Made by a program: the position numbers and the translations under genes
In this document: in pieces, positions 420 to 41,558 of the stretch
Layout of the letters: the number at the start of each line of letters is the position of its first letter
Position numbering within the stretch: the first letter of the stretch is position 1
Assembly: GCA_001792895.1 (NCBI GenBank)
Contig: MARA01000043.1
Span: 1-64,000, forward strand
Source: Lentinus brumalis
Lineage: Eukaryota; Basidiomycota; Agaricomycetes; Polyporales; Polyporaceae
DNA: 64,000 nt
Reading direction: 5' to 3'
The notes under the pieces: generated by a model
The model's database searches: none
Told to the model about the DNA's origin: nothing
What the model saw: only the letters and a program-made list of their open reading frames with translations

Positions 420-1000
420 GAGCGGGCGCCCGCTCGTCGTCGGCCCTAGTAGACACCGTCTGTATCGTCCGAGGCAGTCGAAAGTCATACAGAGCACGTC
501 GTGACGACCCATCTACATCTTTGAAGAGACGTTTCGAGCGGCCGACCGCTCACGAACAAGGATCGGTCGTGTATCTCCTGCTGCTCGCGACGCACCGCGC
601 GATACGAGCAAAGAGGTCCCTGATACGGCTCCTGTCCTACCGACGCTACGTTTCGAGCGGCCGACCGCTCACGAACCAGGATCGGCCGTGTATCTCCTGC
701 TGCTCGCGACGCACCGCGCGATACGAGCAAAGAGGTCCCTGATGCGGCCCTGTCCTACCGACCCTACGTTTCGAGCGGCCGACGCTCACGAACAGAGATC
801 GATCACGTATCTCCGCCGCTCGCGACGCACCGCAGGGTGAGCGGGCAACCGTCATAATGAGGTGCTGCGGCCCCGCGTAAGTAGCCATTGAGCGGTCGGC
901 CGCTCATCGTCAGATGTGCTTGGAGTGATTCCAAGTGTATCACTTATTCCCTATCACTTATTCCCTATCACTGCTCCGGAGCGGTCGACCGCTCACAAGC
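420..1000. repeat. Palindrome cluster with ~116-bp repeat units upstream of the first BAH gene
   Basis: Six copies of the 16-bp palindrome family are visible, for example near 421 (GAGCGGGCGCCCGCTC), 535, 654, 772 (one base short), 890 and 979 (GAGCGGTCGACCGCTC). Those at 535, 654 and 772 lie in three degenerate tandem units of about 116 bp, which also carry the box TATCTCCTGCTGCTCGCGA (572-590, 691-709). No credible gene is seen in positions 1-1236. The open frames there are GC-rich read-throughs of the repeats. Confidence 0.85.
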
Positions 1001-1125
1001 CTGTGTGCACGAGAGCGGGCCCGTAATTGCCTGCTACAATGTGACGGGTGATTGCCTTATATAGGTGACATGGTGCTCGAGGCCAGGTGAAGGGTGCAGC
1101 TGCGGCAGCCTGGTGTCCCTGCAGG

Positions 1126-1236
1126 GTCGGCGCCAGCGTATAAGTGCGCCATGCAGCGCGCTGTCTCCTCAGACTCTCGTCTCTGTCTCCTCTCCCTCGC
1201 GAACCTCTGCTTCCATCTTAACTCGTCCACATCAAG
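1126..1236 (+). promoter_or_regulatory. Core promoter of BAH paralogue A
   Basis: A TATAAG box at 1139-1144 lies about 95 bp before the start codon and is followed by a pyrimidine-rich CTCTCGTCTC tract. The same layout (GCGCCAG, TATAA, GACTCTCGTCTC) is found before paralogue B at 4119-4223, so the promoter was duplicated with the gene. Function is inferred from conservation and position. Confidence 0.55.
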
Positions 1237-2681
1237 ATGTCGGAATCGTCGAACAACCGACTCACCATCCGCCTGCCGGCCACTCGCTCATCCAGCGTCA
1301 TGTCAACGTCGATGGCAACGTCCGCAGCGACCGTCATGTACGAACCCGATGAGGAGCAGCGCGCCCACGATGCCAAATTGGACGAGCGCGTCGGCCCCCG
1401 CGACGAAATTTCCTCGTCCTTGGGGGAGAACGCGGTCCCCATGCTCGTCCCCCACACGCGTAAGTGTACCTCACGCCGCTATCTGCGCGCCGCTCGCTGA
1501 CACCCGCGCCCTCAGATCCCGGAGGATTCGTGATTGAGACAGGCGGCCTGTGCGTACCATCTCACTGCGCCCGTTGCATGCGCTCCGTGCTGACCAAAGT
1601 TTCGGTTTTCCAGAGTCCGCGTGCGCGGACCCAGGCACCCGCGGACACTACACGTCGTCAACTACGACGCGATCGTCGTCGAGCAGCTCGAGAGCAGGAG
1701 CGAGCGCAAGGTGAGTGTGTCGCGAGCCGTAGCCGCGGTGGAATGTACTTACCTTGTCGCCCCAACAGCCCCTCGTCAAAGTACGCTCGTTGTATTCGTA
1801 CGAAGACCTCGAGACGGCGTACATCAGCCCGAAGTCGCGGCACCCCAGCATCATCCGACTGGTGCAGGGCAAGAAGCAAGTCGTCCTTGGAGATTTCGAC
1901 GAGATAGTCCTCCTAGAGAACATCATCGCCCCCCTCACCGACATCGCGCGCGTCCGCCTCGACGGCGTCAACCTGCCGTTCCTCACTCCCAGCGCAAGGT
2001 GGATCCGCGAAGACGTCACCGTCGCCCAGGCCAACAAGGTCAGGAATTGCGTCCTTTTGGGCGTCGACGACGTGAGTCTCTTCATTTTTTCGTGCGAAAC
2101 TAACCGTTCTCATAATTGATTCGGTCTTTGCAGCAAGGCGTCGCGTGCTGCAGCAGCGAGCATTGCACCTCCGGGACGTTCTACTACCCGGAGGAGCAGC
2201 CGCTCCGCTACTGCACGCACTGCGAGCGGTGGTACCATGTCCGCTGCATGCGGCAGATCGGTACCGTCGCCAGCATCCGCTCTCTCACCTACGCCCAGGG
2301 CTCCGAGCCGCCGAGCTGGATCGTTTGGAAGGCCCCCGCTAGTACCCCATCTCACGTCGCGAGCGACCTCGAACACCTCGTCACCCTCCCCATTCAGCGT
2401 GGATACCTTCTCGGACCCCCCGGTGCCCACCCGCTGCTGTCCTTCGAGATGTTTAGCATCGCGTTACGGCACGCGGTGAAGTCTCGTCGTTTCAAGGCGC
2501 CCACGACGACCACCGAGGCGGAGGTCGTCCTGCAGACTCTGCTCAAGACGACACTGCTGAGAACAACGATCTCAGCCTCCGCGAGGCGACCGCGGCCCTC
2601 CACTGGCTCGCGCGCGTGCCGATGGGGCAGCGGGCGATCTACGAGTGCCCCCGCCGCACCACCATCTTCTTTGAACCGTAA
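1237..2681 (+). CDS. BAH-like/zinc-finger protein, paralogue A (frame broken near its end)
   Basis: Five exons fit GT-AG rules: 1237-1459, 1516-1549, 1614-1710, 1769-2071 and 2134-2681. Exon 4 encodes a BAH-like fold (VKVRSLYSYEDL, GDFDEIVLLENI, RWIREDV). Exon 5 begins with a PHD-like finger, C-x4-C...YCTHC-x2-WYH-x2-C, followed by the family motif LVTLPIQRGY. BAH and PHD modules usually read chromatin, so a nuclear role is likely but inferred. Closest to paralogue B. Exon 5 is one base short near 2557 (CTGCT/GAG), so the literal frame runs to 2760, while the frame homologous to B continues to the TAA at 2679-2681 and restores the C-terminal IYECPRR motif. With that base the protein would be about 401 aa. 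The break is either sequencing error or recent decay. Confidence 0.8.
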
Positions 2682-2879: not shown

Positions 2880-3665
2880 TCGAGCGGACGTCCGCTCGCC
2901 AGCGTACATAGGGAATGTTTCTATCGCTGCTCGGTACGCCGCACACGATGCGACCAAATCTCACACCGACACTACGCCGGGGCCTTCGACACTACGTTCT
3001 GAGCGGCCGCCCGCTCAGAAACGTACTTCAGCCATCTATCTCCCGCTGCTCGCGACACGCTGTCGGACACGAGCTCGGCACACCAGCCCATCGCACATTC
3101 GCCGTCGATGCTACGTTCTGAGCGGCCGCCCGCTCAGAAGCGTACTTCAGCCATCTATCTCCCGCTGCTCGCGACACGCTGCGGACACGAGCTCGGCACA
3201 CCAGCCCATCGCACATTCGCCGTCGATGCTACGTTCTGAGCGGCCGCCCGCTCAGAAGCGTACTTCAGCCATCTATCTCCCGCTGCTCGCGACACGCTGT
3301 CGGACACGAGCTCGGCACACCAGCCCATCGCACATTCGCCGTCGATGCTACGTTCTGAGCGGCCGCCCGCTCAGAAGCGTACTTCAGCCATCTATCTCCC
3401 GCTGCTCGCGACACGCTGTCGGACACGAGCTCGGCACACCAGCCCATCGCACATTCGCCGTCGATGCTACGTTCTGAGCGGCCGCCCGCTCAGAAACGTA
3501 CTTCAGCCATCTATCTCCCGCTGCTCGCGACACGCTGTCGGACCCGAGCTCGGCACACCACCACACCGCACATTCACCGTCGATGCTACGTTCTGAGCGG
3601 TCGCCCGCCCACAAACGCACATCGGTCGCATATCTCCCGCTGCTCGCGACACGGTGCCGACCCTA
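2880..3665. repeat. 119-bp tandem array with palindrome, ~5.5 units
   Basis: Near-identical units of about 119 bp start around 2992, 3111, 3229, 3348, 3467 and 3586. Each holds GAGCGGCCGCCCGCTC about 40 bp before TATCTCCCGCTGCTCGCGA. A single palindrome (GAGCGGACGTCCGCTC) precedes the array near 2882, and two more lie near 3867 and 3954. The rest of 2682-4120 contains no gene that I can support. Confidence 0.9.
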
Positions 3666-4118
3666 GGCTGTGTGTCCTCTAATGCCGTGCGCGTACCTGA
3701 GATCCAATGACCTGACTCGTTATTTGGTTCGTTATCTCCAGCTCTTCACGCCATGCCCTTAGATGAGTGGTTAGCGAGCAGCCGCATAGCTGCCCGACTA
3801 CCCGGCCACAGGGGTTTGCGGGCAGGTGCCCTCTGAGAACACAAACATACAGAGCAATTCCACAACGCGGGCGGTCGCCCGCTCGTAGTGGACCGCGTTA
3901 ACACCGGTAGTATTCTTAGACGTATCTCTCTGTGGGGGCGATCACTGCTTCCGAGCGGTCGCCCGCTCGGAGTGCCGTGTATCTGGGAATGCACAGCAAG
4001 GCACGGGAATTCCCTTCCAGCGACAGTGTGACGAGTATATCCCTAGTATAGTCGATTGGGTTCACGAAGCCAAGTGAAGACTACCTTGCTGGGTCCCCTC
4101 GGGCCTTCCAGGGGGAGC

Positions 4119-4223: not shown

Positions 4224-5636
4224 ATGTCCCGATCCTCGAACAGTCCCCTCACCATCCGCGTGCCTGCTTCGCGCGCATCCAGCTCGGTCTCTTACCCTGC
4301 CGATTACGATCCCGAGGAAGAGCAGCGCGAAATCGACGCCAAATTGGACGAACACGTCGGTGTCCGGGACGAGGTCTCTGCAAAGATGAAGCAGAACGCG
4401 GTGCGCGCCCCCGTGCCCCACACACGTACGTCGCCGCCGCGCTGGTGTTTACATGACAGCGCTCACACCTAACCGCGACAGACGCGCATGGATACGTGCT
4501 TGAGGTCGGAACGCTGTGCGTTCCTCTGCGTAGTTCTCGAGCGCGGGCAATGTGAGCTTACGCCCCGAATTTCCAGGGTCCGTGTGCGGGGTGCTAGGCA
4601 CTCGCGCACGCTCCATGTCGTCAACTACGACGCGATGGTCACGGAGGTCCTCGAGAGCAGATTCTATCGCAAGGTGAGCCTCAGTTCGATCCCACCCTGC
4701 GTTTCGATTGCTAATAAATCGGGCGCATCAGGCCCTCGTCAAAGTGCGGGCGTTATACTCGCGAGAGGACCTCGACACGCCGTACCTCGCTCTCAGCTCG
4801 CGGAACCCGAACACCATTCCCCTGGTCCAGGGCAGGCACCAGGTCGTCCTCGGAGACTACGATGATATCATCTTCATCGAGAACATTATCGCCCCACTGA
4901 CGGACGTCGCACGCGTCACCCTCGATGGCACCACTCTCCCCATCCTCACCCACAACGCGCGATGGATTCGCGAAGATGTCTGCGTTGCCCAGGGCCCGAA
5001 GGTGCAAGGATCCATTCTTTTCGCCATCGACAAGGTGAGTAACTCCCGACATCCGTGCTTGATTGATAGCACTGACCGGTTTTCACTTTGCAGCAAGGCC
5101 TCGCGTGCTGCAGCAGCGACCGCTGCGTCTCCGGGAGGTTGTACTACCCGGAAGAGCAGCAGCTCCGCTACTGTACCCACTGCCCGCGGTGGTACCACAT
5201 CCGCTGCATGCGGCAGGTCGGTACCGTCGCCAGCATCCGCGCGGCGACGTACGCCCCAGGCTCCGAACCTCCCAGTTGGATCATGTGGAGGGCCCCCGCG
5301 AACACCCCGCCGCACGTCGCCAACTACCTCGAGAGCCTCGTCACGTTGCCGATTCAGCGCGGGTACCTCGCGGGACCCCCCGGCGCGCACCCGCTTTTTT
5401 CGCTCCAGACGTTCACCATCGCCCTACGCCAGGCCGTGCGGTCCCACCGCTTCCAGGCCCCGGCCTCCCCCGGCGAGGCCGAACTCATGCTGCAGAATGT
5501 CCTGAAGTCGAACCTGCTTGAGAACCACGAGCCAAGTCTCCGCGAGGCCACCGCCGCCATCCATTGGCTGGCGCACATCCCGATGAGCGAGCGGGCCATC
5601 TACCAGTGCCCCCGCCGCGACCATCACGTTCTCTGA
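4224..5636 (+). CDS. BAH-like/zinc-finger protein, paralogue B (intact)
   Basis: This is the clearest intact member. Exons 4224-4425, 4482-4515, 4577-4673, 4732-5034 and 5094-5636 join in frame to give 392 aa. Exons 2 (34 bp), 3 (97 bp) and 4 (303 bp) are the same lengths as in A. Domain order: acidic N-terminus (DPEEEQ); BAH-like core at about residues 112-211 (VKVRALYSREDLDT, GDYDDIIFIENIIAPL, RWIREDV); PHD-like finger at about 215-250 (CCSSDRC...YCTHC-x2-WYHIRC); LVTLPIQRGY; C-terminal YQCPRRDHH, whose Cys and His could complete a zinc site. Family knowledge suggests chromatin association; no function is demonstrated. Palindrome arrays lie on both sides. Confidence 0.87.
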
Positions 5637-6500
5637 GTCGCTCGGCTTCCCTGTGTACAGGTACGCTATCAAATGTAGTTTGCGTTCAAGTTCCATAGTT
5701 GTATCTGCTCAAGCCCATGTACCCGCTCGCACGTCGTCCAATGAATTGAGTCAAAACAATGAAGTCGCTCTGACATGTGTATAAAGCCGGCCCGATGTGC
5801 CAGACTCGCCAGGTATGTTGTCGAGCGGGCGACCGCTCGCGATCGTACATGCGTCGCATCTCTCGCCGTATCTCGATGTTCTCTCTACGTGCCGCTGCAC
5901 GCGTGCGGAGAGTACCCAGATCTTGGACCGACGCCTCCATGCCTAGGTTTTGAGCGGCCGGCCGCTCGCCAATCTGCATCGGTGTCCTATGTGCGGGTGG
6001 CCGCGTCCTGAATGTAACCGCATCCTAACCCCTCGCGAGCCCGGAGTCGTGTAGAATCTGTTGCTCGCAATGCACTACTTGCCGCATGCGATGCGCACCC
6101 GGATACCTCATCTACGCGTGCGAGGCGACGTTCTGAGCGGCCGACCGCTCGCGAACGTGGTTCAGTATTCCATCTCCATCTCCGTCTGCTCGCGATCAGC
6201 CATTGGACATACTCTGCGGGCAGACACCGCACTTGCACTCCCTTATGACTACTCACATGTTGTCCGCAGGAATGTACCTCCTCTTGTCTGGGCTCGCGGG
6301 TTCGTGCACGGCTAGCGAATAGCTCCCGTCCGGCCTACCGCGATCGAGATTGTCTTTCATGAGCGCGCAGCGGACCTGAGTGGCTGACGTCTCGCCCGAG
6401 CTTCGCTCAAAATTTCCACGGGACTCCCGCCCCGCCGCCGCCGCTCTTCGCGTCCATCGAACTCATCTGGAACGACCCCAACGCAGAGCCCGCGCGCATC
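5637..6500. repeat. Spacer with three palindromes, no gene
   Basis: Palindromes of the GAGCGG-NCGN-CCGCTC family lie near 5822 (GAGCGGGCGACCGCTC), 5953 (GAGCGGCCGGCCGCTC) and 6136 (GAGCGGCCGACCGCTC). No open frame with coding character is seen before the start of paralogue C. Confidence 0.75.
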
Positions 6501-7878
6501 ATGAAGAGCTCCGGCGCACCCAAGCGTGTTCGCACATACAATACCAACCTGCGCATCGCCACTGACGCGCATCGACGCGCAAGGGTGAAAAGCGACGCAG
6601 AGCGTCGCGCGGTTCAACAACGCCTCCATGGGCACCGGGTCGACGAGATCAACGTTCAAGGTGAGTCATTGCGAATACTGTTCCGCATCCCACGCATCCT
6701 CAGCATTTTCTGGCAGCATCATGCGGGGCCCAGGTTTCCGTGCGGCAGGGACAATGGTAGCCTCCATCCGCGCGTCACTCACAGCGTGATACTCACATTT
6801 CACAGCCTTCGCATCCTATTGCGACGCTCACAGACGATAGGAACCCTCATGTCCTGGATAGGAGAGGTCGATGAGATAAACCAGGACGCAGAAGATCACG
6901 ACGTACGTCCTCATCTCGCGCGCAGTGAGACTCATCGTCGCTAACTGTAGTGTCCTCTGTGCCGTAGGTATACTATGTTGTGCTCCGCGTCCTCTATACT
7001 GCACGGGACCTGTCACTAGGCGTACAGTATACGGAGCACGCCGCGGGGGACGCTGCTGCCCTCACAGGCAAAAAGCAGTTGATTCGCAGCAATGCGATGG
7101 TTCGCTGCTACTCCACCGATATTCTCGAAGTCATTCACGTCGCACGCATGACTCTCGACGCCGCCAACTTCCCCTTCGTTGACCCTACTCAGTTCTGGCT
7201 CCGCGAAGACATTGCCGTCAACACGGCGAACGAGAAACCTCTCTCCGACGAGCCTGTCGCTATTCAGGTGAGCCCGCGCCATCCCGCACAAGGAGATGAC
7301 CAACTTCATCGCTCTACATAGGTCTCGCGCCGCTTCTGTCACGGAGACTGTGCAAAACAAGGGCTCTATCTCCCGGAGAGAGAGACGGCCCGTTTCTGTC
7401 CAGAGTGCGCACACTGGTTCCATACTCAGTGTCTCGGCACGCCCCTCGGGACTGTCCAAGGCCTTCGCTCAGGCGACAACGGATTCAAGTTGCCCTCTTG
7501 GATCACCTGGCCCGGCCCGCAGTGTAACCCTGCGCTGGTCGACCACACAACGGTCGGCGAGGCTGTGAGCATGATAACCTTGCCGATCGAACGCGGCAAT
7601 AACGACGGCACTCTCCCCGGGAGTCCGCAGTGGGCGGTATCATTGGAATCATTTCTGATCTCCCTTCGCAATGACCTGGTTGCAGGGAGATATGCGTTCT
7701 CGTTCGCGGAACCCAGTTGGTCCAATCACCTAGAGGACCGGCTCGCAGGGTGCGTCGTCCCCCCGGAGACGACGACACGTTGACTGCAGCGATGAGCTAC
7801 CTCAACGTAGCGACCAATAACCCCTTGTCCGAGCGTAAGGTTTATCTTTGCCCTTTCGATGACACGCACTATATCTAG
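6501..7878 (+). CDS. BAH-like/zinc-finger protein, paralogue C (one-base frame break)
   Basis: Exons 6501-6660, 6717-6756, 6806-6902 (97 bp as in A, B and D), 6968-7267 and 7322-7878. It is more divergent than A and B but aligns along its length: BAH-like LRVLYTARDLSLG...FWLREDIAV, then finger FCHGDC...FCPECAHWFHTQC, MITLPIERGN, and C-terminal VYLCPFDDTHYI. In a C6 run near 7760-7765 one base is missing, so the literal frame stops at TGA about 7783. One extra C restores the family C-terminus to the TAG at 7876-7878, giving about 384 aa. The start is the first ATG that leads into the conserved exon chain and is less certain than in A and B. Confidence 0.72.
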
Positions 7879-8034: not shown

Positions 8035-8750
8035 GCGAGCGGTAGACCGCTCGAGCGGTGCTCCGGCGAAGGCGGGCGACATCCTCGCACCATCGCATTG
8101 CTTCAGACGGATGAGTCGTCGGGAGCGGGCGACCGCTCGACAACAGCGACAGCGTCTGTCGCGAGCGGTCGACCGCTCGCCCGATGCTTCGGCGACGGCT
8201 GGGGACTCCCTCGCCGGAATCCATTGCTTCAGACGGATGACTCGTATCGAGCGGTCGACCGCTCGAGAGAGGCTCCGGCGACGGCGGGCGACATCCTCGC
8301 ACCATCGCATTGCTTCAGACGGATGAGTCGTCGGGAGCGGGCGACCGCTCGACAACAGCGACAGCGTCCGTCGCGAGCGGTCGACCGCTCGCCGGATGCT
8401 TCGGCGACGGCTGGGGACTCCCTCGCCGGAATCCATTGCTTCAGACGGATGACTCGTATCGAGCGGTCGACCGCTCGAGAGATGCTCCGGCGACGGCGGG
8501 CGACATCCTCGCACCATCGCATTGCTTCAGACGGATGAGTCGTCGGGAGCGGGCGACCGCTCGACAACAGCGACAGCGTCCGTCGCGAGCGGTCGACCGC
8601 TCGCCCGATGCTCCGGCGACGACTGGGGACTCCCTCGCCGGAATCCATTGCTGCAGACGGATGAGCGGTCGACCGCTCGAGCGATGCCCCGGCGACGGTG
8701 GGCGACATCCTCGCCTCAATGCGTTGCTTCAGACAGATGACTCGTCGCGA
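8035..8750. repeat. 212-bp tandem array, ~3.3 units, with about a dozen palindromes
   Basis: The landmark GGGAGCGGGCGACCGCTC recurs at 8121, 8333 and 8545, exactly 212 bp apart. Each unit contains three palindromes (types GGGCGACC and GGTCGACC) separated by TTGCTTCAGACGGATGA segments. One unit is internally shortened near 8660. Confidence 0.92.
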
Positions 8751-10550: not shown

Positions 10551-10919
10551 CTTGTTTATGGCATGGCAGCTCCTGATTTGCCTGTCAAGCCTGTGCATCA
10601 GATACAAAATGATATGCAGAATCTAAGCACTTGCCAACCATGACTTGCAGTCGTGCTGCAGTGTCCCACTCTTGAGTACGAGAACCTGCTTGCTCCCTCA
10701 GGCTCGCATACCTGGTCTCTGAAGAGAGTGTTACGTGCATTGAGAATGTTCCGTACGGGCGGGCGCTTAGCACGTAGATGCACGGATGTACAGGGCCACA
10801 TATGCGCCAGTCATGGTTCATTCGGGCATGAGACGCACGAACCCGCGGAGCGGTCAGTCGCTCGGGCAAGGCGCGGATGTCAGGAGAAGTGCACCACAAA
10901 ATGGTACTACGCCTGCTTC

Positions 10920-11700
10920 TTCGATGCTACAGTCTGAGCGGCCGGCCGCTCGCGAGAGCACATTGGTCCCGTATCTCCCGCTGCTTGCGACGCACGGCAG
11001 GACGGGTAAACAGAGCAGCGTGATACTGCGCCTAAGCCTACGACGGTATGTTCTGAGCGGTCGCCCGCCCACGAACGTATGTCGGTCAGGTATCTCCCGC
11101 CGCTCGCGACGCGGCGCCGGACGCGTGTTGAGTGTCCGGTGAAGGGTACGGGCACCATAGATGATACGCAGTGAGCGGCCGACCGCTCGCGAGAGCACAT
11201 TGGTCCCGTATCTCCCGCTGCTTGCGACGCACCGCAGGACGGGTAAACAGATCAGCGTGATACTGGGCCTACGCCTTCGACGGTACGTTCTGAGCGGTCG
11301 CCCGCCCACGAACGTATGTCGGTCAGGTATCTCCCGCCACTTGCGACACGGCGCAGGACGCGTGTTGAGTGTCCGGTGAAGGGTACGGGCACCAGAGATG
11401 ATACGCAGTGAGCGGCCGACCGCTCGCGAGAGTGCATCGCTCCCGTATCTCCCGCTGCTTGCGACGGACTGCAGGACGGGTAAACAGAGCAGCGTGATAC
11501 TTCGCCTACGCCTTCGACGGTATGTTCTGAGCGGTCGGCCGCCCACGAACGTACGTCGGTCAGGTATCTCCCGCCGCTCGCGACACGGCGCCGGACGCGT
11601 GTTGAGTGTCCGGTGAAGGGTACGGGCACCAGAGATGATACGCAGTCAGCGGCCGACCGCTCGCGAGAGTGCATCGCTCCCGTATTGTTAACGACCGCCC
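10920..11700. repeat. 237-bp tandem array, ~3.3 units
   Basis: GAGCGGCC-type palindromes recur at 10936, 11173, 11410 and, mutated, at 11647, exactly 237 bp apart. Each unit carries a second, weaker palindrome (GAGCGGTCGCCCGCCC) and two copies of a TATCTCCCGC-GCTTGCGA box. Positions 10550-10900 and 11700-11967 hold no gene that I can support. Confidence 0.9.
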
Positions 11701-11967: not shown

Positions 11968-13284
11968 ATGCCTCCTCCGACGCTCGCAGACTATGGCCGC
12001 CACTTCGAGACGACTGTGCCGTCGATAACGAGGGTCCCGGAGAAGGTCCGCACGGCGGAGGAAGTGCCATCGGTACAACGCAAGTTTTCCTGACCGTCCG
12101 TGCATGGGTGCACACTGACCGATTATACAGACCCTGCTGGATTCGAAATCACAAAAGACATGGTGTGCGTGCTGAGGGAGTAAGCGGGGAGATGATGAGG
12201 CGATTACTGACATCGAATGCTGCAGGGTGTTGTGCAAGCAAGGGCGACATCCGCAGACGGACCACGCAATCGTGTTCTACGCCCTGGTGGAGCAACCCCT
12301 CGTACTTCGGCGGCTCCGCGAGGTGAGTACGGAATGAGAAGGGACGTCCGTGATGCTGACGGTGGATGTACTGTCAGCCGTTTCTCAAAGTGCGGCCATT
12401 CTACGTGCGCGACGATCTCGACGTGTCAAACCTGGCGGGGAGCTCGTGCCGAACGGAAACGAAGGCAGCGATTCAGGGATTGCACCAGTGCGTGCTCGCC
12501 ACGGACAGCGAACACATTCATGTGACGCAAGTCATCGGGCTTGAGCACGTACCGTTGCTCGAGGCGACCAAGATTTCGTTCCCGCTGGTCCTGGCACATA
12601 CGCGGTGGTACCGCGCGGACGTGGAGATAGAGGTTATATCGCTCAACAAGAAGACGAAAATGCTACGTGCTGCGAAGGTGAGTTAGAACGTGTGCTCGCG
12701 TTCAGATGTCGTTAAGGCTACAGCGTGCTGACGCAGATGTGTCTGAGCAGGCGGTGGCGCCGTTCTGTGCGGCGCAATGCACGAAGATGCGGGCGTACTC
12801 TGCCGCGGACGACGTTGTCCGGTGGTGCGAGGACTGCCGGCAGTGGTTCCACGAGAGCTGCTTGGAGCAGCGGAATACGGTGGAGTTCTATCGCGAGGAA
12901 CACGCGAAGGAGCCGTACACGGACTTTCCGGCATGGGTATTGTGGGACACAGAGGAACCGGTTCCCCCGCAGGTGTACCGACACTTCCTGGGGCTGATCA
13001 CGACACCGATCCGGAGATGCTATCCTGAGGTATCGCCCCACCACATATTGACGGCGGAGCTGTTTCTCAGCAAGTTGCGGGATGCGGCGAAGCGGCCGGG
13101 CTTCGCCATTCCGCCCAGCGAACGAGCATACCGAGCCTTCGTGGACTCCCTGCTGGTGCCGACACTACTGCGTCCGGACGTCCGCAGTCCGCACATCGAC
13201 CGGTTCATCGAGTACCTGACGCAGGTGAACCTTGGTGAGAAGATGCTGTACCAGTGCCCCCGTCATCCCGACCACGTCATCTAA
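11968..13284 (+). CDS. BAH-like/zinc-finger protein, paralogue D (intact)
   Basis: Exons 11968-12079, 12131-12164 (34 bp), 12226-12322 (97 bp), 12378-12677 (300 bp) and 12751-13284 join in frame to 358 aa. Intron 1 appears to use a GC donor (CAAC/GCAAGT); intron 2 uses GTGCGT as in A and B. The BAH-like part reads FLKVRPFYVRDDLDV...TRWYRADVEIEV. The finger is FCAAQC...WCEDCRQWFHESC, followed by ITTPIRRCY and the C-terminal LYQCPRHPDHVI. Sequence is far from A and B although exon lengths are identical, so the family is old rather than freshly duplicated. No break is seen. Spacer palindrome arrays flank it. Confidence 0.83.
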
Positions 13285-13464
13285 TAGCTCGGGTAGTATA
13301 GAGTTCAGGTAGGTATGGATTGCAATGTACTAGTTGGCAATTGGGCCAGGGTATGAAACGTTATAGCCGCGACGGAATGCGTGGAGAGCGGGCGGCCGCT
13401 GGGAGACGGGTCGTAACCACATGGGGAGGCGTTCAGCTAGAGGCGAATCTTTGTGTATTCGCGT

Positions 13465-29624: not shown

Positions 29625-29890
29625 TGCGCGCGGTCGCCCGATCGCGACGCGTTGTCTCTGCGTCTCCAATAGTGAACGGTCGGCCGCCCGCAGGCCTCTT
29701 TCTGCGTATGTTCGATAGCGAGCGGTCGCCCGCTCGCGGGCATCTTTCTGCATATGTTCGATAGCGAGCGGTCGCCCGCTCGCGGGCATCTTGCTGCGTA
29801 TGTTCGATAGCGAGCGGTTGGCCGCTCGCGGGCATCTTTCTGCGTATGTTCGATAGCGAGCGGTCGGCCGCTCGCGGGCATCTTTCTGCT
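29625..29890. repeat. 46-47-bp palindrome array, ~4 units
   Basis: TATGTTCGATAGCGAGCGG recurs near 29707, 29753, 29799 and 29846. Each unit carries GAGCGGTCG(C/G)CCGCTCGCGGGCATC. A diverged fifth palindrome precedes the array near 29680. Confidence 0.9.
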
Positions 29891-30030
29891 GTTGTCCGCT
29901 CGTAACCTCCTGTCGATAGTCACACACAGTTTGCGGTCACAGGTGTATTTATGCCTATCTCCACTGTAAGCGCCCACTGTGCGTGACTATCGACAGGAGA
30001 TTACGAGCGGACAACAGCAGAAAGAGGCCC
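29883..30030. repeat. Short inverted repeat, ~45-bp arms
   Basis: CTTTCTGCTGTTGTCCGCTC...GTCGATAGTCAC at 29884-29928 is repeated in inverse orientation at about 29980-30026 with one or two differences, around a loop of about 50 bp. The right arm leads into further degenerate palindrome halves (GAGCGGCGGACCACTC). Confidence 0.8.
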
Positions 30031-30104
30031 GTGAGCGGCGGACCACTCACTATCGCACACAAGAGGCCCACAAGCGGCGGAATACTTTGCATTGGCTGAT
30101 CATA

Positions 30105-31790: not shown

Positions 31791-32215
31791 TATTGTATCG
31801 TGAACAATATGAGCGGTCGACCGCTCGCACACCTCGCTGTGAGCGGTCGACCGCTCGTACCCTACTGTCCGCCCTCGCCCGCTCGTACCTCGCTGTGAGC
31901 GGTAGGCCGCTCGCTGCGATGTTCTAGGCGAGAACTGCCTGCTGCCGTGCACTGTCCAACTGCTGATCATGGAAAACGAAGGGACATCTGGTGAATGCAT
32001 CATATTGTATCGTGAACAATATGAGCGGTCGACCGCTCGCACACCTCGCTGTGAGCGGTCGACCGCTCGTACCCTGCTGTCCGCCCTCGCCCGCTCGTAC
32101 CTCGCTGTGAGCGGTCGGCCGCTCGCTGCGATGTTCTAGGTGAGAACTGCCTGCTGCCGTGCACTGTCCAACTGCTGATCATGGAAAACCAAGGGACATC
32201 TGGTGAATGCAGGCC
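31791..32215. repeat. 212-bp direct duplication with palindromes
   Basis: TATTGTATCGTGAACAATAT followed by GAGCGGTCGACCGCTC occurs at 31791 and again at 32003. The two units of 212 bp each carry three or four palindromes or halves. TATTGTATCGTGAACAATA is itself an imperfect palindrome. Confidence 0.88.
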
Positions 32216-32564
32216 GCGAGCGGTCGACCGCTCACCACGGGTGCGTCTGCCGGACATAGCGTTGGACGTGCCGGGATGCAGGCTAGTACACCGGACCTGC
32301 AACTCCAAGCGTACAATCCAAGCGGCCGACCGCTCTCGAATATGTGTTGGTGCGGTATCTCCTGTCGCTCGCGACGCGCCGCCGAGCATGTTCTGAGCAC
32401 GCCCTGATACAAGACTGATGTGTTCAACGCTTAGTGTATCGGCACGCCGCCGGACACGTCTTGAGTGCAAATACCATACTTATGCATCCCGTGCTACGTT
32501 CAGCGACCCCCATTACCCTGCCGTGAGCGGCCGACCGCTCGTGGGTGCTCACGGTATTGTATAT

Positions 32565-32647
32565 CAGCCCTCCTGGCTTAGTTGGTAGACCACTTAGAAG
32601 CTGTGCCGCTGCACGTCGTGGTCGCAGGTTCGATTCCTGCAGGGCTG
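32565..32647 (+). tRNA. tRNA-like Pol III unit, type 1
   Basis: A 7-bp acceptor pairing (CAGCCCT with AGGGCTG), an A box TGGCTTAGTTGG, and a T arm GCAGG-TTCGATT-CCTGC with a perfect B box. The anticodon arm is a GACCAC/GTGGTC stem with a 24-nt loop containing a small GTGC/GCAC hairpin, so either an intron is present or it is a tRNA-derived sequence. The D and anticodon stems compete for the same bases. I do not assign an amino acid. Confidence 0.45.
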
Positions 32648-32728
32648 TATTCGGCTTGGGAATCAGCTTTTTTGTGGCCTGGCGACGCGATGAGTGGGGT
32701 GACGCGGGGTTCTACTGATGCCGTTGTG

Positions 32729-32802
32729 GGCCCTACTGGCTTAGTGGGTAAGCCGCTCTGCGAACGCATCGAGCGGTCGCAGGTTCGATTCCTGTGGGGC
32801 TC
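32729..32802 (+). tRNA. tRNA-like Pol III unit, type 2
   Basis: Acceptor GGCCCTA pairs with TGGGGCT (two G-U pairs). The D arm is GGCT-TAGTGGGTA-AGCC; the T arm is GCAGG-TTCGATT-CCTGT. The anticodon arm is CCGCTC/GAGCGG, the same two hexamers as the ends of the palindrome, with a 12-nt loop. Related to type 1 in sequence. Probably a tRNA relic or tRNA-derived repeat. Confidence 0.4.
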
Positions 32803-32915
32803 TTATGGTCGCCTAAACACTTTTTTCTGGTTCGATTCCACCGCTCGATGCCAGTAGGGCCACCGTTCCTCATCGCGTCGCCAGGCGACAAAAACCGAGA
32901 TACCCAAGACGAATA

Positions 32916-32998
32916 CAGCCCTGCAGGAATCGAACCTGCGCCCACGACGTGCAGCGGCACAGCTTCTAAGTGGTCTACCAACTAAGCCAGGAGGGCTG
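32916..32998 (-). tRNA. tRNA-like unit, type 1, inverted copy
   Basis: Reverse-complement copy of the 32565-32647 unit, lying at the inner end of the right arm of the large inverted repeat. A and B boxes are intact; it has one substitution in the T-stem flank compared with the copy at 35730-35812. Confidence 0.45.
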
Positions 32999-32999
32999 A

Positions 33000-34370
33000 T
33001 ATACAATACCGTGAGCACCCACGAGCGGTCGGCCGCTCACGGCAGGGTAATGGGGGTCGCTGAACGTAGCACGGGATGCATAAGTATGGTATTTGCACTC
33101 AAGACGTGTCCGGCGGCGTGCCGATACACTAAGCGTTGAACACATCAGTCTTGTATCAGGGCGTGCTCAGAACATGCTCGGCGGCGCGTCGCGAGCGACA
33201 GGAGATACCGCACCAACACATATTCGAGAGCGGTCGGCCGCTTGGATTGTACGCTTGGAGTTGCAGGTCCGGTGTACTAGCCTGCATCCCGGCACGTCCA
33301 ACGCTATGTCCGGCAGACGCACCCGTGGTGAGCGGTCGACCGCTCGCGGCCTGCATTCACCAGATGTCCCTTGGTTTTCCATGATCAGCAGTTGGACAGT
33401 GCACGGCAGCAGGCAGTTCTCACCTAGAACATCGCAGCGAGCGGCCGACCGCTCACAGCGAGGCACGAGCTGCCAACCGCTCATATGGCACGGTACGAGC
33501 TGTCGACCGCTCACGGTACGGTACGAGCGGTCGACCGCTCATAGCAGTGTACGAGCAGTCGAATGCTCACGACAAGGGGTACGGTACAAGCGGGCAGCCG
33601 CTCACGGTACGGTACGAGCGGTCGACCGCTCACGGTACGGTACGGTCGACCACTCACGACAAGGTACGAGCGGTCGACCGCTCACGGTACAGTACGGTCG
33701 GCCACTGAAGGTACATAACGGGCGGTCGGCCGCTCACGGTACGGTACGAGCGGTCGTCCGCTCGTAGCAGGCGGTCAGCCGCGCACGGTACGGTACGAGC
33801 GGTCAACCGCTCACGGTACGGTACGGTCGACCACTCACGACAAGGTACGAGCGGTCGACCGCTCACGGTACAGTACGGTCGACCACTCAAGGTACAGTAC
33901 GGGCGGTCGTCCGCTCACGGTACGGTACGAGCGGTCGTCCGCTCACAGCAGGCGGTCGGCCGCTCACGACGAGGTACGAGCGGTCGTCCGCTCACGACGA
34001 GGTACGAGCGGTCGTCCGCTCACGACGAGGTACGAGCGGTCGTCCGCTCACGACGAGGTACGAGCGGTCGTCCGCTCACGATGAGGTACGAGCGGTCAAC
34101 CGCTCACGACAGCAGGTGGTCGGCCGCTTGTAACGTGCCGTGGATGGCCGACTGCTCACCATACATTCTGCAACCGTTTACCTTCTACACAGTTCTGAGC
34201 GGTTGCCCGCTCGTTCGCTACTTATACCAATCACACCCACCTCCCTGCCACCAACCGCTCCTCCGCCGCAATTTATGCTCTCCAGCAACTCGACCGCTCG
34301 CAACGTACATTCGGCCCAATAATGCTCACCCTTACCTCCCCTAACCCTAAGGGGGTTACAGAAATACCTA
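33000..34370. repeat. ~1.3-kb duplicated segment, copy 1, dense in palindromes
   Basis: Matches 35815-37130 in the same orientation. It begins next to the type 1 tRNA-like unit, includes a run of 20 or more palindromes alternating with GGTACGGTAC spacers (33440-34120), and ends at CTAACCCTAAGGGGGTT. It is about 56 bp longer than copy 2, equal to extra short array units. Confidence 0.9.
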
Positions 34371-34774
34371 TCAATTGGCTGAGCACTTTCTATGGCCAAG
34401 GATATTACTGTAGATCAGTCCCGTACGTACTATGTGAGCGGCCGACCGCTCGGAATGCACTGTTGATCCTTACGATGGTTCTGTCGCTGGCCGATCACGG
34501 TGAGCGGTCGACCGCTCATATGCTCATATCTCATTGAAGTCATCGTGAGCAGCTGGTGACTTACTATAGTCAACTGCTCACCTTCTACATGGTTCTGAGT
34601 GGTTGCCCGCTCGTTCGCTACTCATACTGATCACACCAACCTCCCTGCCACCAACCGCTCCTCCGCCGCAATTTATGCTCTCCAGCAACTCGACCGCTCG
34701 CAATATACATTCAGCCCAATAATGCTCACCCTTACCTCCCCCTAACCCTAAGGGGGTTACAAAATACCTATCAA

Positions 34775-35812: not shown

Positions 35813-35814
35813 AT

Positions 35815-37130
35815 ATACAATACCGTGAGCACCCACGAGCGGTCGGCCGCTCACGGCAGGGTAATGGGGGTCGCTGAACGTAGCACGGGATGCATAAGTA
35901 TGGTATTTGCACTCAAGACGTGTCCGGCGGCGTGCCGATACACTAAGCGTTGAACACATCAGTCTTGTATCAGGGCGTGCTCAGAACATGCTCGGCGGCG
36001 CGTCGTGAGCGACAGGAGATACCGCACCAACACATATTCGAGAGCGGTCGGCCGCTTGGATTGTACGCTTGGAGTTGCAGGTCCGGTGTACTAGCCTGCA
36101 TCCCGGCACGTCCAACGCTATGTCCGGCAGACGCACCCGTGGTGAGCGGTCGACCGCTCGCGGCCTGCATTCACCAGATGTCCCTTGGTTTTCCATGATC
36201 AGCAGTTGGACAGTGCACGGCAGCAGGCAGTTCTCGCCTAGAACATCGCAGCGAGCGGCCGACCGCTCACAGCGAGGCACGAGCTGCCAACCGCTCATAT
36301 GGCACGGTACGAGCTGTCGACCGCTCACGGTACGGTACGAGCGGTCGACCGCTCATAGCAGTGTACGAGCAGTCGAATGCTCACGACAAGGGGTACGGTA
36401 CAAGCGGGCAGCCGCTCACGGTACGGTACGAGCGGTCGACCGCTCACGGTACGGTACGGTCGACCACTCACGACAAGGTACGAGCGGTCGACCGCTCACG
36501 GTACAGTACGGTCGGCCACTGAAGGTACAGTACGGGCGGTCGGCCGCTCACGGTACGGTACGAGTGGTCGTCCGCTCGTAGCAGGCGGTCAGCCGCGCAC
36601 GGTACGGTACGAGCGGTCAACCGCTCACGGTACGGTACGGTCGACCACTCACGACAAGGTACGAGCAGTCGACCGCTCACGGTACAGTACGGTCGACCAC
36701 TCAAGGTACAGTACGGGCGGTCGGCCGCTCACGGTACGGTACGAGCGGTCGTCCGCTCACAGCAGGCGGTCGGCTGCTCACGACGAGGTACGAGCGGTCG
36801 TCTGCTCACGACGAGGTACGAGCGGTCGTCCGCTCACGATGAGGTACGAGCGGTCAACCGCTCACGACAGCAGGTGGTCGGCCGCTTGTAACGTGCCGTG
36901 GATGGCCGACTGCTCACCATACATTCTGCAACCGTTTACCTTCTACACAGTTCTGAGCGGTTGCCCGCTCGTTCGCTACTTATACCAATCACACCCACCT
37001 CCCTGCCACCAACCGCTCCTCCGCCGCAATTTATGCTCTTCAGCAACTCGACCGCTCGCAACGTACATTTGGCCCAATAATGCTCACCCTTACCTCCCCC
37101 TAACCCTAAGGGGGTTACAGAAATACCTAT
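35815..37130. repeat. ~1.3-kb duplicated segment, copy 2, dense in palindromes
   Basis: Nearly identical to 33000-34370, offset about 2.8 kb. Differences are single substitutions and fewer short units near 36770-36860, so the duplication is recent. Confidence 0.9.
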
Positions 37131-37640: not shown

Positions 37641-37957
37641 ACAGGTCACGTGACCTAACCCCCTCTGGGGTTAGGGTAGGGTTAGCAGACCCCGCCCTAG
37701 GGTTATATTCCTGCCTAGGTACCATCCCTGCATTTGCTGTACAAGTCTCTCATAACTCTAACCTATGCTCGCGAGCGGTCGACCGCTCAGACGGTATCTG
37801 CCGCTGCGAGCTAGCGAGCGGTCGTCCGCTCGCGAGCATGATCCGCTACCTTCTGTCTGACAGCTGATACTCGCGAGCGGTCGACCGCTCGAACACATCC
37901 TCACCCACGCTCCACTACCTTCTGTCTGACATTGAAGCTCACGCAATGATTGTACAG

Positions 37958-38238
37958 ACGTCAGTTCCATGGTGGTCACCCCGCCGGTCTCGCACGCTCA
38001 GAAGGACGACAACCAAGGCACCGCCCGCATTACTCGCAAGCGTGCCGCGACAAGTACAGCAGAGCCCGAAGATAAGGCGGTCAAGGTCCTGAAGAAGGAC
38101 CTCAAGACTGGCTCTGGCGCGACCAGCTCGACGCAGCCTGTCGCGGCGAGGACTCGTCAACGTCCTCAGCCCGGTGCAAAGTCCAAGGCAAATGCCGCGA
38201 TGGTTAAGGACGACGACACTGACGCGATGATCGGTTGA
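37958..38238 (+). pseudogene. Copied last exon of gene G (fragment)
   Basis: Begins after the same TGTACAG acceptor and reads VSSMVVTPPVSHAQK... to DAMIG and stop in one open frame, 281 bp, which joins in phase with the upstream exon of gene G. The rest of gene G is absent, so it is a fragment. It shows the undamaged reading of the last exon of G, where several homopolymers are one base shorter. Confidence 0.8.
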
Positions 38239-38693
38239 GTTCTTTGTCCCCGTCTCTCCTTCCGCGCTCCTGTGCCCGCCGGTCTGTCTGTCGTTCGCTG
38301 AATGTTGCGCTTCCTGATTGTACTTGTATCGCATATCCTTCCCTCCCTCCCGTCGCATAGTCCTGCCCATGTACCACTCCTACTCGTTCCTGTATATCTC
38401 TCCTCGCCATAATTGAATGCAATTGTCTCTCGCCCTTTAAATGATGACTCATCTGAAATGACACACCCCCGATCGCACAACCAAATAGCGTTCCCGCTGC
38501 TTGAACGTTTGAAGCCCTCTGATCCGCTCTTTCTAGCCTACCGCTGCCTTGGGGTCGCATAAATCATTGCTGCGTGGTCAAAAGTCGTCTGCGGTCCCCT
38601 CCCACCCTTACCCTAACTCCCCAACTTGTCGTCCCCTCCCTCCAGCATTCTATCTCCATCTCCCGCCGCTCGCGATATCTCCTGCTGCTCGCG

Positions 38694-41558
38694 ATGGACA
38701 CCAACTTCGCCTTCTACGATGATCAACCGACGTTTTCTCAAGAGGAGCCGTCCTTCGAACAAGATGAACAGCCGGAAGAAGACGTAAAGTACGTGTCTGA
38801 GGGCATCTATCTATCTGGCCACTGTCCTGCTTTGCGCACTCCGTCCTCATCGTACCCCTCCCCCTCTCTCAATTGATAGCGAACTCGACGAGCCCCTCGG
38901 CGCGGCGGCGTACACCGATGACGAGGAAGACGGGCCTCTCCGCGAGCCGTTCAACATCAGCTTCATCCCGCCGACCATGGTGACCGAGGACAGTGTCTCG
39001 CAGGAGGAGGTCACCCGCGGCCATCTCGTCGCGGACGCTCACTTTGACGAGTTGGCGCAGAGGTATGTCGAGATGCCGACCAGAACCGTCCTCCTCTCCG
39101 ATCTTGAGCAGAACTTCAACTCCCGCGACCAAGAGAGGGCTCTCTCGCTCCTCCAGCGCAAGAACCTTCTCAAGGTCGACAGCCGCTACTTGTACGCCGC
39201 CAATGATCCCAAGATCTACTGGAAGCTGAGCGAGGTGTGTACATGATGCTACCTCTGTTACCATCTCTGTGTCTCATCCCACCCATGCGTTCTCGCTCCC
39301 TGTGCCCTTTCTGGCGTGCAGGTGCGCTGGGACTGCGACATACGTGTCCCGAAGGAGCTCGGCTTCGGTGCTGTGTTGCCGCCAGTGGACAAACCGGACT
39401 GGTCGTTCACGATGCGCTTCGACCGCAGACATTGGACGTTCAAGGGCGACCGGCGCGTCTTTGGTTTCCTGCCCGACCACCGGATGTTATACATTGGCCA
39501 GGCTCCGATGCAGGCTGATGTGTTCATCGCGCTCATGCCTGTCGACGCCTTTGCCGCAGACCCGGAGCCTGTCCGCCACACGCGCGTGCCCACGACGATG
39601 AGTTCTGTTGTGGCACGCATTACCATCTCCATGATCACCTACATGCTCGTCAAGGCTGGCTATGGTACGGTATACATGACGGAAGAGTATCCCGACGTCG
39701 CGAAGGAGTATGAATGGCGGTTGCAAACCAACATCTTGTGAGTCCTGCCATTTCCCGCATGTGGTCTTGCCCATGTCGTTGCGACGCCCGCCCATTGCTA
39801 CCGTGCACAATCAGAGGCAGGCGCGTGTCTTGACTCTCGTCGCTCACCCTAACCCTTGGGTAACCACAAGGGATATTGACGATGAGCGGTCGCCCGCTCC
39901 GGACGATACATCCCAATATTGTGAGCGTACGACCGCTCACCGTGACCATTGGATGATAGCAAGCGCATGGATGAGCGGTCGCCCGCTCCGGACGATACAT
40001 CCCAAATATGTGAGCGTACGACCGCTCACCGTGACCCTTGGATGATAGCAAGCGCATGGATGAGCGGTCGCCCGCTCCGGACAACGTGTCGCTCTGAGCG
40101 GTCGCCCGCTCCGGACGATGTGTCGCTCTGAGCGGTCGCCCGCTCCGGACGATGTGTCGCTCTGAGCGGGCGACCGCTCAGAGCGACACATCGAGCGTAC
40201 GACCGCTCACCGTGACCCTTGGATGATAGCAAGCGCATGGATGAGCGGTCGCCCGCTCCGGACAACGTGTCGCTCTGAGCGGTCGCCCGCTCCGAACGAC
40301 ACATCCCACTATTGTGAGCGTACGACCGCTCACCGTGACCCTGGGATCACAGCAAGCGCATGGATCAGTGTCGCTCTGAGCGGTCGCCCGCTCCAGACGA
40401 CATATCACCATGAGCGTGCGACAGGTCGCCAGACGACACCGCATAAGCGGTTGCCCGCTCCAGATGGATTGTCGAGTACTAATAGCGGCTGACCCGTGGC
40501 AGAAGATGCCTTGTGAGCGGTCGCCCGCTCCTATTCTCCCCATTCCACATTTGTTGCACGTCATGTATGCTCACTCGTTTCGTCAGCGACAATCCCATCT
40601 GGCAGTTCACTACCGAGACTCTTCGGAACCTCGACCGTGCGATCAAGGAGCATTACGACGAATGGTGGCAGGGAGCACCGGACTCGTACAGAGTCCCAGA
40701 GTTCATCGACGCTGAGCCCGTTGCCATCCTCGCCAAGTATGGCCAAAACATCAAAATCTGTGCCCCAGCTACCTTCGAGGCCGATCGCGATACTTGGAAC
40801 GACATGATCGACTTCAACAACATCCTCCGCATTCACATGGCTTATGCTGTGCATACCCAGTGCGTGTTAACACCTGCATCTCATACATATGCTCTCATAT
40901 CAATTGCACCACACGCATCCTGACTGTAGGGCTATTGAGGCAAGCGGCTTCGAGCCTATCGACCCCCAGCGCATCCTCGATCGCTACACACATGTATACA
41001 CGACCGCCGATCCGAACACGCGCGAGCTCATCGAGGACTTGGAAAACTACGACCTCCTCGACGGTGACGGTCGCGAGATCCCCATCTTCTCCGAGGACGG
41101 ACTTCCAATCCTCCGCAGAGACAGGTTTCGCGACCCGGACACACCTCCCTGCGGCTTGCTCCAGGATCTCAACAAGGTCCTCCCCCTCTTTCAAGAGTCC
41201 TCGATCATCCCGCTTCAGGACCCTGAGCTCGACGACGGGGAGAGGGATCTCCAGGACGAGGACTTCATCGCCGACATCCTTGGGGACCCGTCTGAGCCCA
41301 TGACACCCATCTTCACCTACCCCCAGTTCTTCTCCAAGAACATCGGTCAGTGGCAGGCGGACGGCATCATCAAGCCTCTCCTGCGTCCCTTGCGCCGTCT
41401 CGCCCGCGACATAGGCGTCACTGCGGACGGGCCCCTCTGCATTGAGGGCTTCAAGTCCCAGGCATACAACAATGTCGCCCATCACGTCCGAGACAAGGCC
41501 CGCACTCACATCGCGCAGCGCGGGCCGCTCACTGGTGCTACGGCTGGCGCTTGGGCCC
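38694..41558 (+). pseudogene. Truncated copy of gene F (first ~600 residues)
   Basis: Starts at the same ATG as gene F and keeps exons 1-4 and part of exon 5, including introns. All these exons are open here, whereas two have one-base losses in the original. At 41558 the copy ends in mid-exon; the frame then runs by chance through unrelated DNA and antisense through the tRNA-Leu gene to 41788. About 55% of the protein is missing. It could still make a truncated protein, but I treat it as a pseudogene. Confidence 0.82.
39880..40525. repeat. Palindrome cluster in the copied intron 3 of gene F
   Basis: About a dozen sites, mainly GAGCGGTCGCCCGCTC and GAGCGTACGACCGCTC, in CGGACGATACATCCCA / GGATGATAGCAAGCGCATGG units. 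The order and number of units differ from the original at 20550-21080. This is the last dense cluster of the palindrome in the window. Confidence 0.9.

What the first reader, a model, noticed from the sequence alone, without database searches (positions are those of the whole stretch)
420..40525. A 16-bp palindrome, GAGCGG-NCGN-CCGCTC, repeated roughly 200 times in one island and nearly absent beyond it
Perfect and near-perfect copies (GAGCGGTCGACCGCTC, GAGCGGGCGCCCGCTC, GAGCGGCCGGCCGCTC and variants at the two N positions) occur in spacers and introns from 0.4 to 40.5 kb, singly and in arrays of at least seven different unit lengths. The 23 kb after 41 kb have essentially none. Arms are conserved while spacers are not, which implies selection on, or spread of, the 16-mer itself. 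The count is by eye.
Basis: seen in the sequence. Interest (0 to 1): 0.9.

Follow-up and report, generated by a model that had tools for sequence, protein, structure and literature searches.

The report
Palindrome-studded fungal chromosome-end gene block
A fungus that is likely a wood-rotting relative of Lentinus carries one 16-base DNA palindrome about 1,300 times, massed (as far as copies could be placed) near contig ends, two of them capped by telomere repeats; the palindrome is likely the docking site of a protein that binds DNA as a symmetric pair, and it would then be a new kind of chromosome-end control site.

Summary
The window has 134 exact copies of GAGCGGNCGNCCGCTC, and 192 with up to 2 mismatches against 0.93 expected. 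Exact copies lie at 420-40530, none from 42 kb on. The genome has 1314 exact copies against 2 for the reversed control. Every place the tools listed (a part of the 1314) lies within 47 kb of a contig end or in a contig under 100 kb; two such ends carry telomere repeats. The island is a recurrent block: one marker gene has 12 copies plus a fragment.

The 16-mer itself is constrained. In 10 diverged 119-bp units the fixed positions are 96% identical, the rest 52%, the two N positions 36%. Arm spacing is 4 bp in 143 of 144 cases. No arm change is compensated on the other side (46 are one-sided), so sequence is kept, not pairing. Arrays sit at fixed places but vary in site number (5-31 in one).

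I read it as a dimeric protein-binding site of CGG-N4-CCG type, with arrays grown by unequal recombination. A Zn2Cys6-like gene family, 9 of 11 copies on contigs with palindromes, is a candidate reader, unproven. ParB and BAH readings were not confirmed.

The parts
321..994 (.). palindrome cluster 1 (6 sites with up to 2 mismatches, partly 119-bp units)
2882..3968 (.). palindrome cluster 2 (9 sites, 119-bp units)
5823..6150 (.). palindrome cluster 3 (3 sites)
8037..8678 (.). palindrome cluster 4 (10 sites, 86/126-bp units)
10848..11662 (.). palindrome cluster 5 (8 sites, 119/237-bp units)
13386..14212 (.). palindrome cluster 6 (18 sites, 90-bp units)
15878..16121 (.). palindrome cluster 7 (3 sites)
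18005..18685 (.). palindrome cluster 8 (9 sites, 166-bp units)
20553..21061 (.). palindrome cluster 9 (10 sites)
23219..23634 (.). palindrome cluster 10 (7 sites)
25968..26693 (.). palindrome cluster 11 (21 sites, 34/35-bp spacing; 5-31 sites among 11 copies)
27961..28247 (.). palindrome cluster 12 (8 sites), inside a predicted intron of the 26743-29122 gene
29628..30048 (.). palindrome cluster 13 (7 sites, 46-bp units; 7-22 sites among 12 copies)
31811..34612 (.). palindrome cluster 14 (35 sites, 28/52/181-bp units)
35837..36970 (.). palindrome cluster 15 (20 sites), duplicate of part of cluster 14
37773..37890 (.). palindrome cluster 16 (3 sites)
39884..40530 (.). palindrome cluster 17 (15 sites, 34/89-bp units)
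1237..2680 (+). island gene, zinc-finger (PHD-like) family member 1; ends approximate
   Evidence: gene model; paralogue matches; PHD E 0.029, below cut-off
4224..5636 (+). island gene, PHD-like family member 2; 94% identical to a Lentinus brumalis protein
6272..7878 (+). island gene, PHD-like family member 3 (5' end uncertain)
12160..13284 (+). island gene, PHD-like family member 4
14279..15577 (-). island gene, PHD-like family member 5
16198..17797 (-). island gene, 511 aa, no Pfam family; its 24 genome matches all lie on palindrome-bearing contigs
21204..22244 (-). island gene, 288 aa, no Pfam family above cut-off; inverted duplicate at 38694-39741
23873..25915 (-). island gene model, 641 aa with acidic stretch, no Pfam family
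26743..29122 (-). island marker gene (ParB-like only by eye, not confirmed); 12 copies plus a fragment in the genome
37124..37204 (+). fragment of the subtelomeric Zn2Cys6-like gene family (zinc cluster itself not in the window)
37098..37109 (.). CCCTAACCCTAA, interstitial telomere-like sequence at a block junction
37765..41566 (.). inverted duplicate of 19.5-23.3 kb; last island piece before ordinary genes

Best explanation
The 16-mer GAGCGG-NCGN-CCGCTC is likely the binding site of a homodimeric DNA-binding protein, predicted to be of the Gal4-type zinc-cluster class (inverted CGG triplets with a fixed 4-bp gap), and it occurs in arrays all through a recurrent block near contig ends. Shown: 14 of 16 positions are held while flanks and, to a lesser degree, the two N positions vary; spacing is rigid; sequence and not pairing is conserved; arrays stay at fixed places and change by whole units between copies; the block recurs near contig ends, at least two of them with telomere repeats. 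Inferred from gene models: the sites lie in spacers and in an intron. Inferred: a dimeric protein reads the sites; several sites per spacer allow cooperative binding that sets the chromatin or expression state of the block, or insulates gene from gene; arrays grow and shrink by unequal recombination between neighbouring sites, while binding selects units that keep the core. The candidate reader is a Zn2Cys6-like protein family found mostly on the same contigs; no binding was tested.
For: 134 exact and 192 near copies against 0.93 expected; 1314 in the genome against 2 for the control. Ten representatives of 19 units of the 119-bp family (43-72% identical to each other): fixed positions 96%, rest 51.5%, N 36%; the best other 16-column block is 79% (the units were found by a 71-base similarity that includes the core, plus one that I added). 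27 flank families: 1.3-2.0 bits at the 14 fixed positions, 0.35 at N, at most 0.37 outside (cores with up to 3 mismatches were searched for, which raises core values). GAGCGG-Nx-CCGCTC in the island for x 0-20: 143 at x=4, 1 at x=3, none elsewhere. No symmetric compensated single-step arm variant against 46 one-sided changes; N1 pairs with N2 in 40 of 134, below the shuffle mean of 48.7. CGG-N4-CCG 193 in 41.6 kb of island, 9 in 42-64 kb; other spacings 0-15 in the island 9-62. Among near-identical copies mismatch is 1.30% at fixed positions, 2.12% in flanks, 4.18% at N. Arrays at fixed places with 5-31 or 7-22 sites. Zn2Cys6-like family: 11 copies of its first exon, 9 on contigs with palindromes, one about 1.5 kb from a telomere; motif C-x2-C-x6-C-x8-C-x2-C-x6-C.
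Against: No protein has been shown to bind the site. The zinc-cluster match is below Pfam's cut-off (E 0.014, 15.9 bits against 21); that gene is only a fragment in the window, and 2 of its 11 copies (C57, C61) lie on contigs that appear in none of my palindrome lists. Fixed positions differ more between copies (1.30%) than other non-coding island DNA (0.32%), so the constraint is relative to their own fast-changing arrays. The N positions are not wholly free: N1 is T 62, G 44, C 26, A 2 of 134. A simple operator model does not explain 21-31 sites in one array or an array inside an intron. A second conserved block in the 119-bp units shows that the 16-mer is not the only conserved motif.
Confidence: 0.55

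Rival explanations
1. The palindrome is a recombination or breakage hotspot: it founds minisatellites because it is cut, stalls forks or recombines, and it is common only because it multiplies itself, without host function.
For: Most longer-period tandem arrays in the island have the 16-mer in their unit; arrays differ by whole units between copies; interstitial telomere-like junctions and inverted duplications show a recombining region.
Against: Fixed positions are kept in units that have diverged to about half identity, while N positions drift; pure spread does not explain that. Some sites are single, and two arrays lack the 16-mer (22556-22924, 34857-35538).
Confidence: 0.2
2. Ordinary promoter operator of an island-specific transcription factor that co-regulates the gene family, multiplied by tandem duplication without further role.
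For: By gene models the sites lie in spacers next to genes; the site has the inverted-CGG form used by fungal zinc-cluster factors (established knowledge, recalled); island genes look maintained (dN/dS 0.23 in one exon pair of PHD-like genes 1 and 2; exon divergence 0.12% against 0.32% in other non-coding DNA).
Against: Sites are also in a predicted intron and in spacers on both sides of genes; 17 clusters come every 1.4-3.4 kb whatever the gene strand (no null model was run for the spacing).
Confidence: 0.25
3. A methylation or RIP-like target that marks heterochromatin (the core has three CpG).
For: Three CpG in 16 bp, one at the centre; 134 of 143 GAGCGG-N4-CCGCTC have CG at the centre.
Against: CpG is not depleted in the island (observed/expected 1.145 against 1.128 in 42-64 kb), and CpG transitions make up 47 of 129 changes at fixed positions, 6 of 14 of which are CpG, so there is no clear excess.
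Confidence: 0.07
4. A mobile mini-element: the 16-mer (or it plus a small target duplication) inserts as a unit.
For: Same core in unrelated flanks with borders at 16 bp.
Against: None of the 9 gaps of 10 or more bases in aligned blocks is 16 long: 10, 14 (2), 24, 28 (3), 30 (2) (blastn breaks at larger gaps, so the test is limited). I know of no element that short that moves alone (recalled).
Confidence: 0.06

Closest known systems
Y' elements of Saccharomyces subtelomeres (PMC13177704, abstract and outline read)
   Same: Multi-copy blocks at chromosome ends, with interstitial telomere sequences, conserved ORFs and (section heading) a 36-bp repeat that makes length vary.
   Different: The block here is about 40 kb in the window, holds many unrelated predicted genes, and one 16-bp palindrome runs all through it; no helicase was seen among the window proteins scanned.
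CENP-B-box-like motifs shared by divergent satellites in Meloidogyne (PMC3694981, abstract and outline read)
   Same: A short motif conserved across satellites of low identity, proposed there as a promoter of array rearrangement.
   Different: Here a two-fold palindrome with two variable positions, in a gene-bearing block near contig ends, not in bulk satellite DNA.
Gal4-type Zn2Cys6 sites, inverted CGG triplets (recalled)
   Same: CGG-Nx-CCG inverted repeat with one fixed spacing.
   Different: Spacing 4 with GAG/CTC flanks and central CG; more than 1,300 sites massed near contig ends.
bacterial parS/ParB arrays (parS as a 16-bp palindrome recalled)
   Same: 16-bp palindromes in arrays, next to a gene whose product looked ParB-like by eye.
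   Different: ParB domain not found by Pfam, PHROGs or PDB sequence search; structure model uninformative; a eukaryotic genome.

Membership tests
Y'-type subtelomeric element | lies next to telomeres at several chromosome ends | tested here: met
   All places listed (capped lists for 49 and 77) lie within 47 kb of a contig end or in contigs under 100 kb (lengths); C79 and C55 start with telomere repeats. Contigs may also break in the repeats, so the other ends are not proven telomeric.
Y'-type subtelomeric element | multi-copy, homogenised between ends | tested here: met
   12 marker-gene copies plus a fragment (one stretch is interrupted in C67 and C54); aligned pieces mostly 94-99.9% identical, lowest 83%.
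Y'-type subtelomeric element | interstitial telomere sequences | tested here: met
   C50:17336 and C21:25702; 12-base matches at window 34339, 34740, 37098.
Y'-type subtelomeric element | encodes a helicase (Y'-Help1) | tested here: inconclusive
   None among the 20 window ORFs and models scanned; an SNF2-type gene lies on C123; other blocks were not scanned.
Zn2Cys6 binding site | inverted CGG triplets at one fixed spacing | tested here: met
Zn2Cys6 binding site | bound by a Zn2Cys6 protein | not testable with these tools
   Candidate gene family found, below the Pfam cut-off.
ParB-parS system | ParB-domain protein | tested here: not met
   No ParB hit in Pfam, PHROGs or PDB sequences; AlphaFold model of the exon mean pLDDT 49.3.
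ParB-parS system | arrays of 16-bp palindromes | tested here: met
Mobile mini-element | empty/filled sites with target duplication | tested here: inconclusive
   No 16-bp gap among 9 gaps of 10 or more bases; larger gaps not visible to that test.
CENP-B-box-type satellite motif | short motif conserved across otherwise dissimilar repeat units | tested here: met
CENP-B-box-type satellite motif | CENP-B/pogo protein and centromere location | not tested
   Listed places are near contig ends; centromeres were not located.

The most novel reading that the evidence does not exclude
A self-perpetuating chromosome-end element in a mushroom genome that carries its own reader: a subtelomere-encoded dimeric zinc-cluster protein binds the 16-bp palindrome arrays, and the array-bound block works as a parS- or centromere-like landmark (telomere clustering, silencing border or segregation aid), so that arrays and reader spread together from end to end.
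Probability: 0.15. Interest if true: 0.85.

Novelty: new variant of a known kind. Interest (0 to 1): 0.62.

Why it matters
Short conserved cores inside otherwise dissimilar satellites (CENP-B boxes and the like) raise an old question: are they kept because a protein reads them or because they drive array turnover? This genome offers 1314 exact copies of one 16-mer, in at least seven array types, around 12 copies of one marker gene, plus single sites. That makes selection, turnover and spread separable, and the reader protein identifiable by one pull-down. If true, it also describes a large gene-bearing chromosome-end element in a Lentinus-like fungus.

Tried and rejected
ParB-parS membership: suggested by eye from a GGQHRHAA stretch in the gene at 26743-29122, then not supported by Pfam, PHROGs, PDB sequences or a structure model; kept only as an analogy inside the novel case. 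BAH domain in the PHD-like family: my reading by eye; no Pfam BAH match; AlphaFold on two sequences gave mean pLDDT 29.9. The zinc finger itself is uncertain: PHD best E 0.00099, RING-like zf-RING_11 E 0.00062 and Rubicon-homology E 0.0081 in single members, all below cut-off. No fold search was run, since both models were poor. Hairpin/structure selection: rejected. CpG-decay marking: not supported. Homologues (word-based searches, limited reach): the 609-aa marker gene gave one protein, only the 7998 best candidates being scored; its residues 78-190 none; the PHD-like protein two, named Lentinus brumalis and Polyporus arcularius. DNA of those species was not available, so the motif was not tested in relatives. 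Close pairs of sites: 0 in viral contigs, 6 stretches in prokaryote genomes, not followed up. A telomere-next-to-half-site pattern gave 0. Codon test of two Zn2Cys6-like copies: first exon 5.5 synonymous and 11.5 non-synonymous changes, dN/dS 0.78; the zinc-cluster exon and a 500-bp stretch identical: uninformative for function. One comparison (a BAH-region exon pair) took a wrong reading frame and is discarded. In one search one of the seven array regions (23.2-23.7 kb) could be anchored only in the window. Papers: ten full-text searches; by the listed titles and abstract starts none describes this palindrome; the full 16-mer with TCGA centre occurs in none of the 20 listed papers, and lists put papers with more terms first. 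Only the held PMC library was searched. PMC3694981 and PMC13177704: abstract and outline seen; PMC10817607: passages found by term (no 'palindrom' in it); all others only as search listings.
Full report
Observation. The window holds 134 exact GAGCGGNCGNCCGCTC and 143 GAGCGG-N4-CCGCTC, and 192 places with up to two mismatches against 0.93 expected in dinucleotide shuffles. Exact copies lie at 420-40530, none in 42-64 kb. The sites form 17 clusters, 1.4-3.4 kb apart centre to centre (mean 2.47 kb, CV 0.20; no null model run), and many tandem arrays with TRF periods from 26 to 237 bp. GC content is similar on both sides of 42 kb.

Whole genome. The window is the start of contig C75 (324 kb) of a 53.4-Mb, 136-contig assembly. 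There are 1314 exact copies against 2 for the pattern read backwards. The tool lists only the first places, so I listed variants: all 57 places of one variant, all 11 sites of another, 100 of 173 places of a third, and 50 of 114 close pairs. Each listed place is within 47 kb of a contig end or in a contig under 100 kb (with lengths); in the 11 large contigs concerned such end zones make up 13% of the length. The list starts at C21 and lists run in ascending order, so C1 and C2 (3.84 and 1.43 Mb) and the telomere-bearing C4 are inferred to have none; not every end carries the block. C79 and C55 begin with telomere repeats and carry sites at 12.9-42.3 kb and 1.7-3.4 kb. Other contig ends may be breaks caused by the repeats themselves.

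The block. A marker gene at 26743-29122 has 12 copies plus a fragment; the stretch 387-604 is unbroken in 10 of the 12 and interrupted in C67 and C54. The 18 stretches fetched from 12 contigs align to the window as rearranged pieces, mostly 94-99.9% identical, lowest 83%. The exception is the first 10 kb of C21, which shares only one piece of about 400 bp yet has sites, so the motif also lives outside this block. Telomere-like sequences sit inside or at junctions. A zinc-finger (PHD-like, below cut-off) family fills much of the first 15.6 kb; its 68 genome matches all lie on palindrome-bearing contigs, the weak one at C54:36155 away from listed sites. In a word-based search of 5.8 billion proteins it has two relatives, named Lentinus brumalis (94%) and Polyporus arcularius (66%), hence the inferred host. 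Exons differ by 0.12% between copies, other non-coding DNA by 0.32%, and dN/dS is 0.23 in one paralogous exon pair, so the genes look maintained.

Constraint on the 16-mer. Nineteen 119-bp units (18 by a 71-base similarity that includes the core, one added) reduce to ten representatives 43-72% identical to each other; fixed positions are 96% identical, the rest 51.5%, the two N positions 36%. Across 27 flank families information drops from 1.3-2.0 bits to at most 0.37 at the border (cores with at most 3 mismatches were searched for, which raises core values, and single linkage lumps 163 of 239 sites in one family). Arm spacing is 4 in 143 of 144 cases for gaps of 0-20 in the island. Selection is on sequence and not on pairing: no symmetric compensated single-step variant occurs, against 46 one-sided changes, and N1 and N2 pair less often (40 of 134) than in shuffles (48.7). 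N is not wholly free: N1 is A in only 2 of 134. Between near-identical copies fixed positions differ by 1.30%, flanks by 2.12%, N by 4.18%; fixed positions still differ more than non-array spacers, since arrays turn over fast and can misalign.

Turnover. Array places are fixed but the number of sites varies: 5-31 in the 34/35-bp array (11 copies), 7-22 in the 46-bp array (12 copies), 8-10 in the intron array (12 copies), 9 in each of 4 copies of the 166-bp array. None of the 9 gaps of 10 or more bases in aligned blocks is 16 long (blind to larger gaps). This fits unequal exchange or slippage better than insertion of single cores.

Mechanism. A rigid two-fold site with conserved half-sites is what a homodimer leaves (inference). 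The half-sites CGG and CCG at fixed distance match the form used by Gal4-type Zn2Cys6 proteins (recalled knowledge); CGG-N4-CCG occurs 193 times in 41.6 kb of island and 9 times in 42-64 kb. In the window and the 18 fetched stretches only two places encode a Zn2Cys6-spaced motif, both of one gene family: Pfam Zn_clus E 0.014, below cut-off. Its first exon has 11 copies, on C84, C45 (2), C60 (2), C50, C123, C57, C61, C116 and C107; nine lie on contigs with palindromes, and the C61 copy lies about 1.5 kb from telomere repeats. It is a candidate, not a proven reader. What binding would do (silencing, insulation, co-regulation, clustering of ends) is not shown by any search.

Limits. Gene models come from a small home-made finder with the 16-mers masked; unmasked models place 30 of 192 sites inside called exons, likely misreadings of arrays. 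Structure models failed.

Verdict. The kind of thing, a multi-copy block near chromosome ends with a conserved short site in its repeats, is known; one 16-bp palindrome shared by many dissimilar array types all through a large gene-bearing block is a new variant.

Noticed in passing
572-38694, 25 places: A second conserved 19-bp motif, TATCTCCNGCNGCTCGCGA, 25 matches with up to 3 mismatches against 0.40 expected; in many 119-bp units and directly at the predicted start of the 288-aa gene (22244).
   Followed up: partly
19519-23325 and 37784-41566: A 3.8-kb inverted duplication, 96-100% identical in its longer pieces, whose outer end stops about 160 bp before a tRNA-Leu gene (41727-41808).
   Followed up: partly
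34857-35538 and 22556-22924: Tandem arrays (176 and 184 bp) inside the island without the palindrome.
   Followed up: no
L028 (C84:13.1-16.9 kb) and L039 (C123): On C84 a LINE-like reverse transcriptase (by eye, in a run-on gene model) beside the Zn2Cys6-like gene, with CCCTAACCCTAA about 1 kb before it; on C123 an SNF2-type gene.
   Followed up: partly
L041 (first 10 kb of C21, a 29-kb contig): A 170-bp palindrome minisatellite; one site variant recurs along C21 at intervals of about 4.2 and 8.1 kb, with interstitial telomere repeats at 25.7 kb.
   Followed up: partly
42479-46344 and 60824-62035: Ordinary genes beyond the island: a family-2 glycosyltransferase, a GCV_T folate-binding protein and a HET-domain protein.
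   Followed up: no
L029 (C107:19.4-21.7 kb): In one copy the intron array is split by an extra stretch: two neighbouring palindromes lie 2360 bp apart.
   Followed up: no
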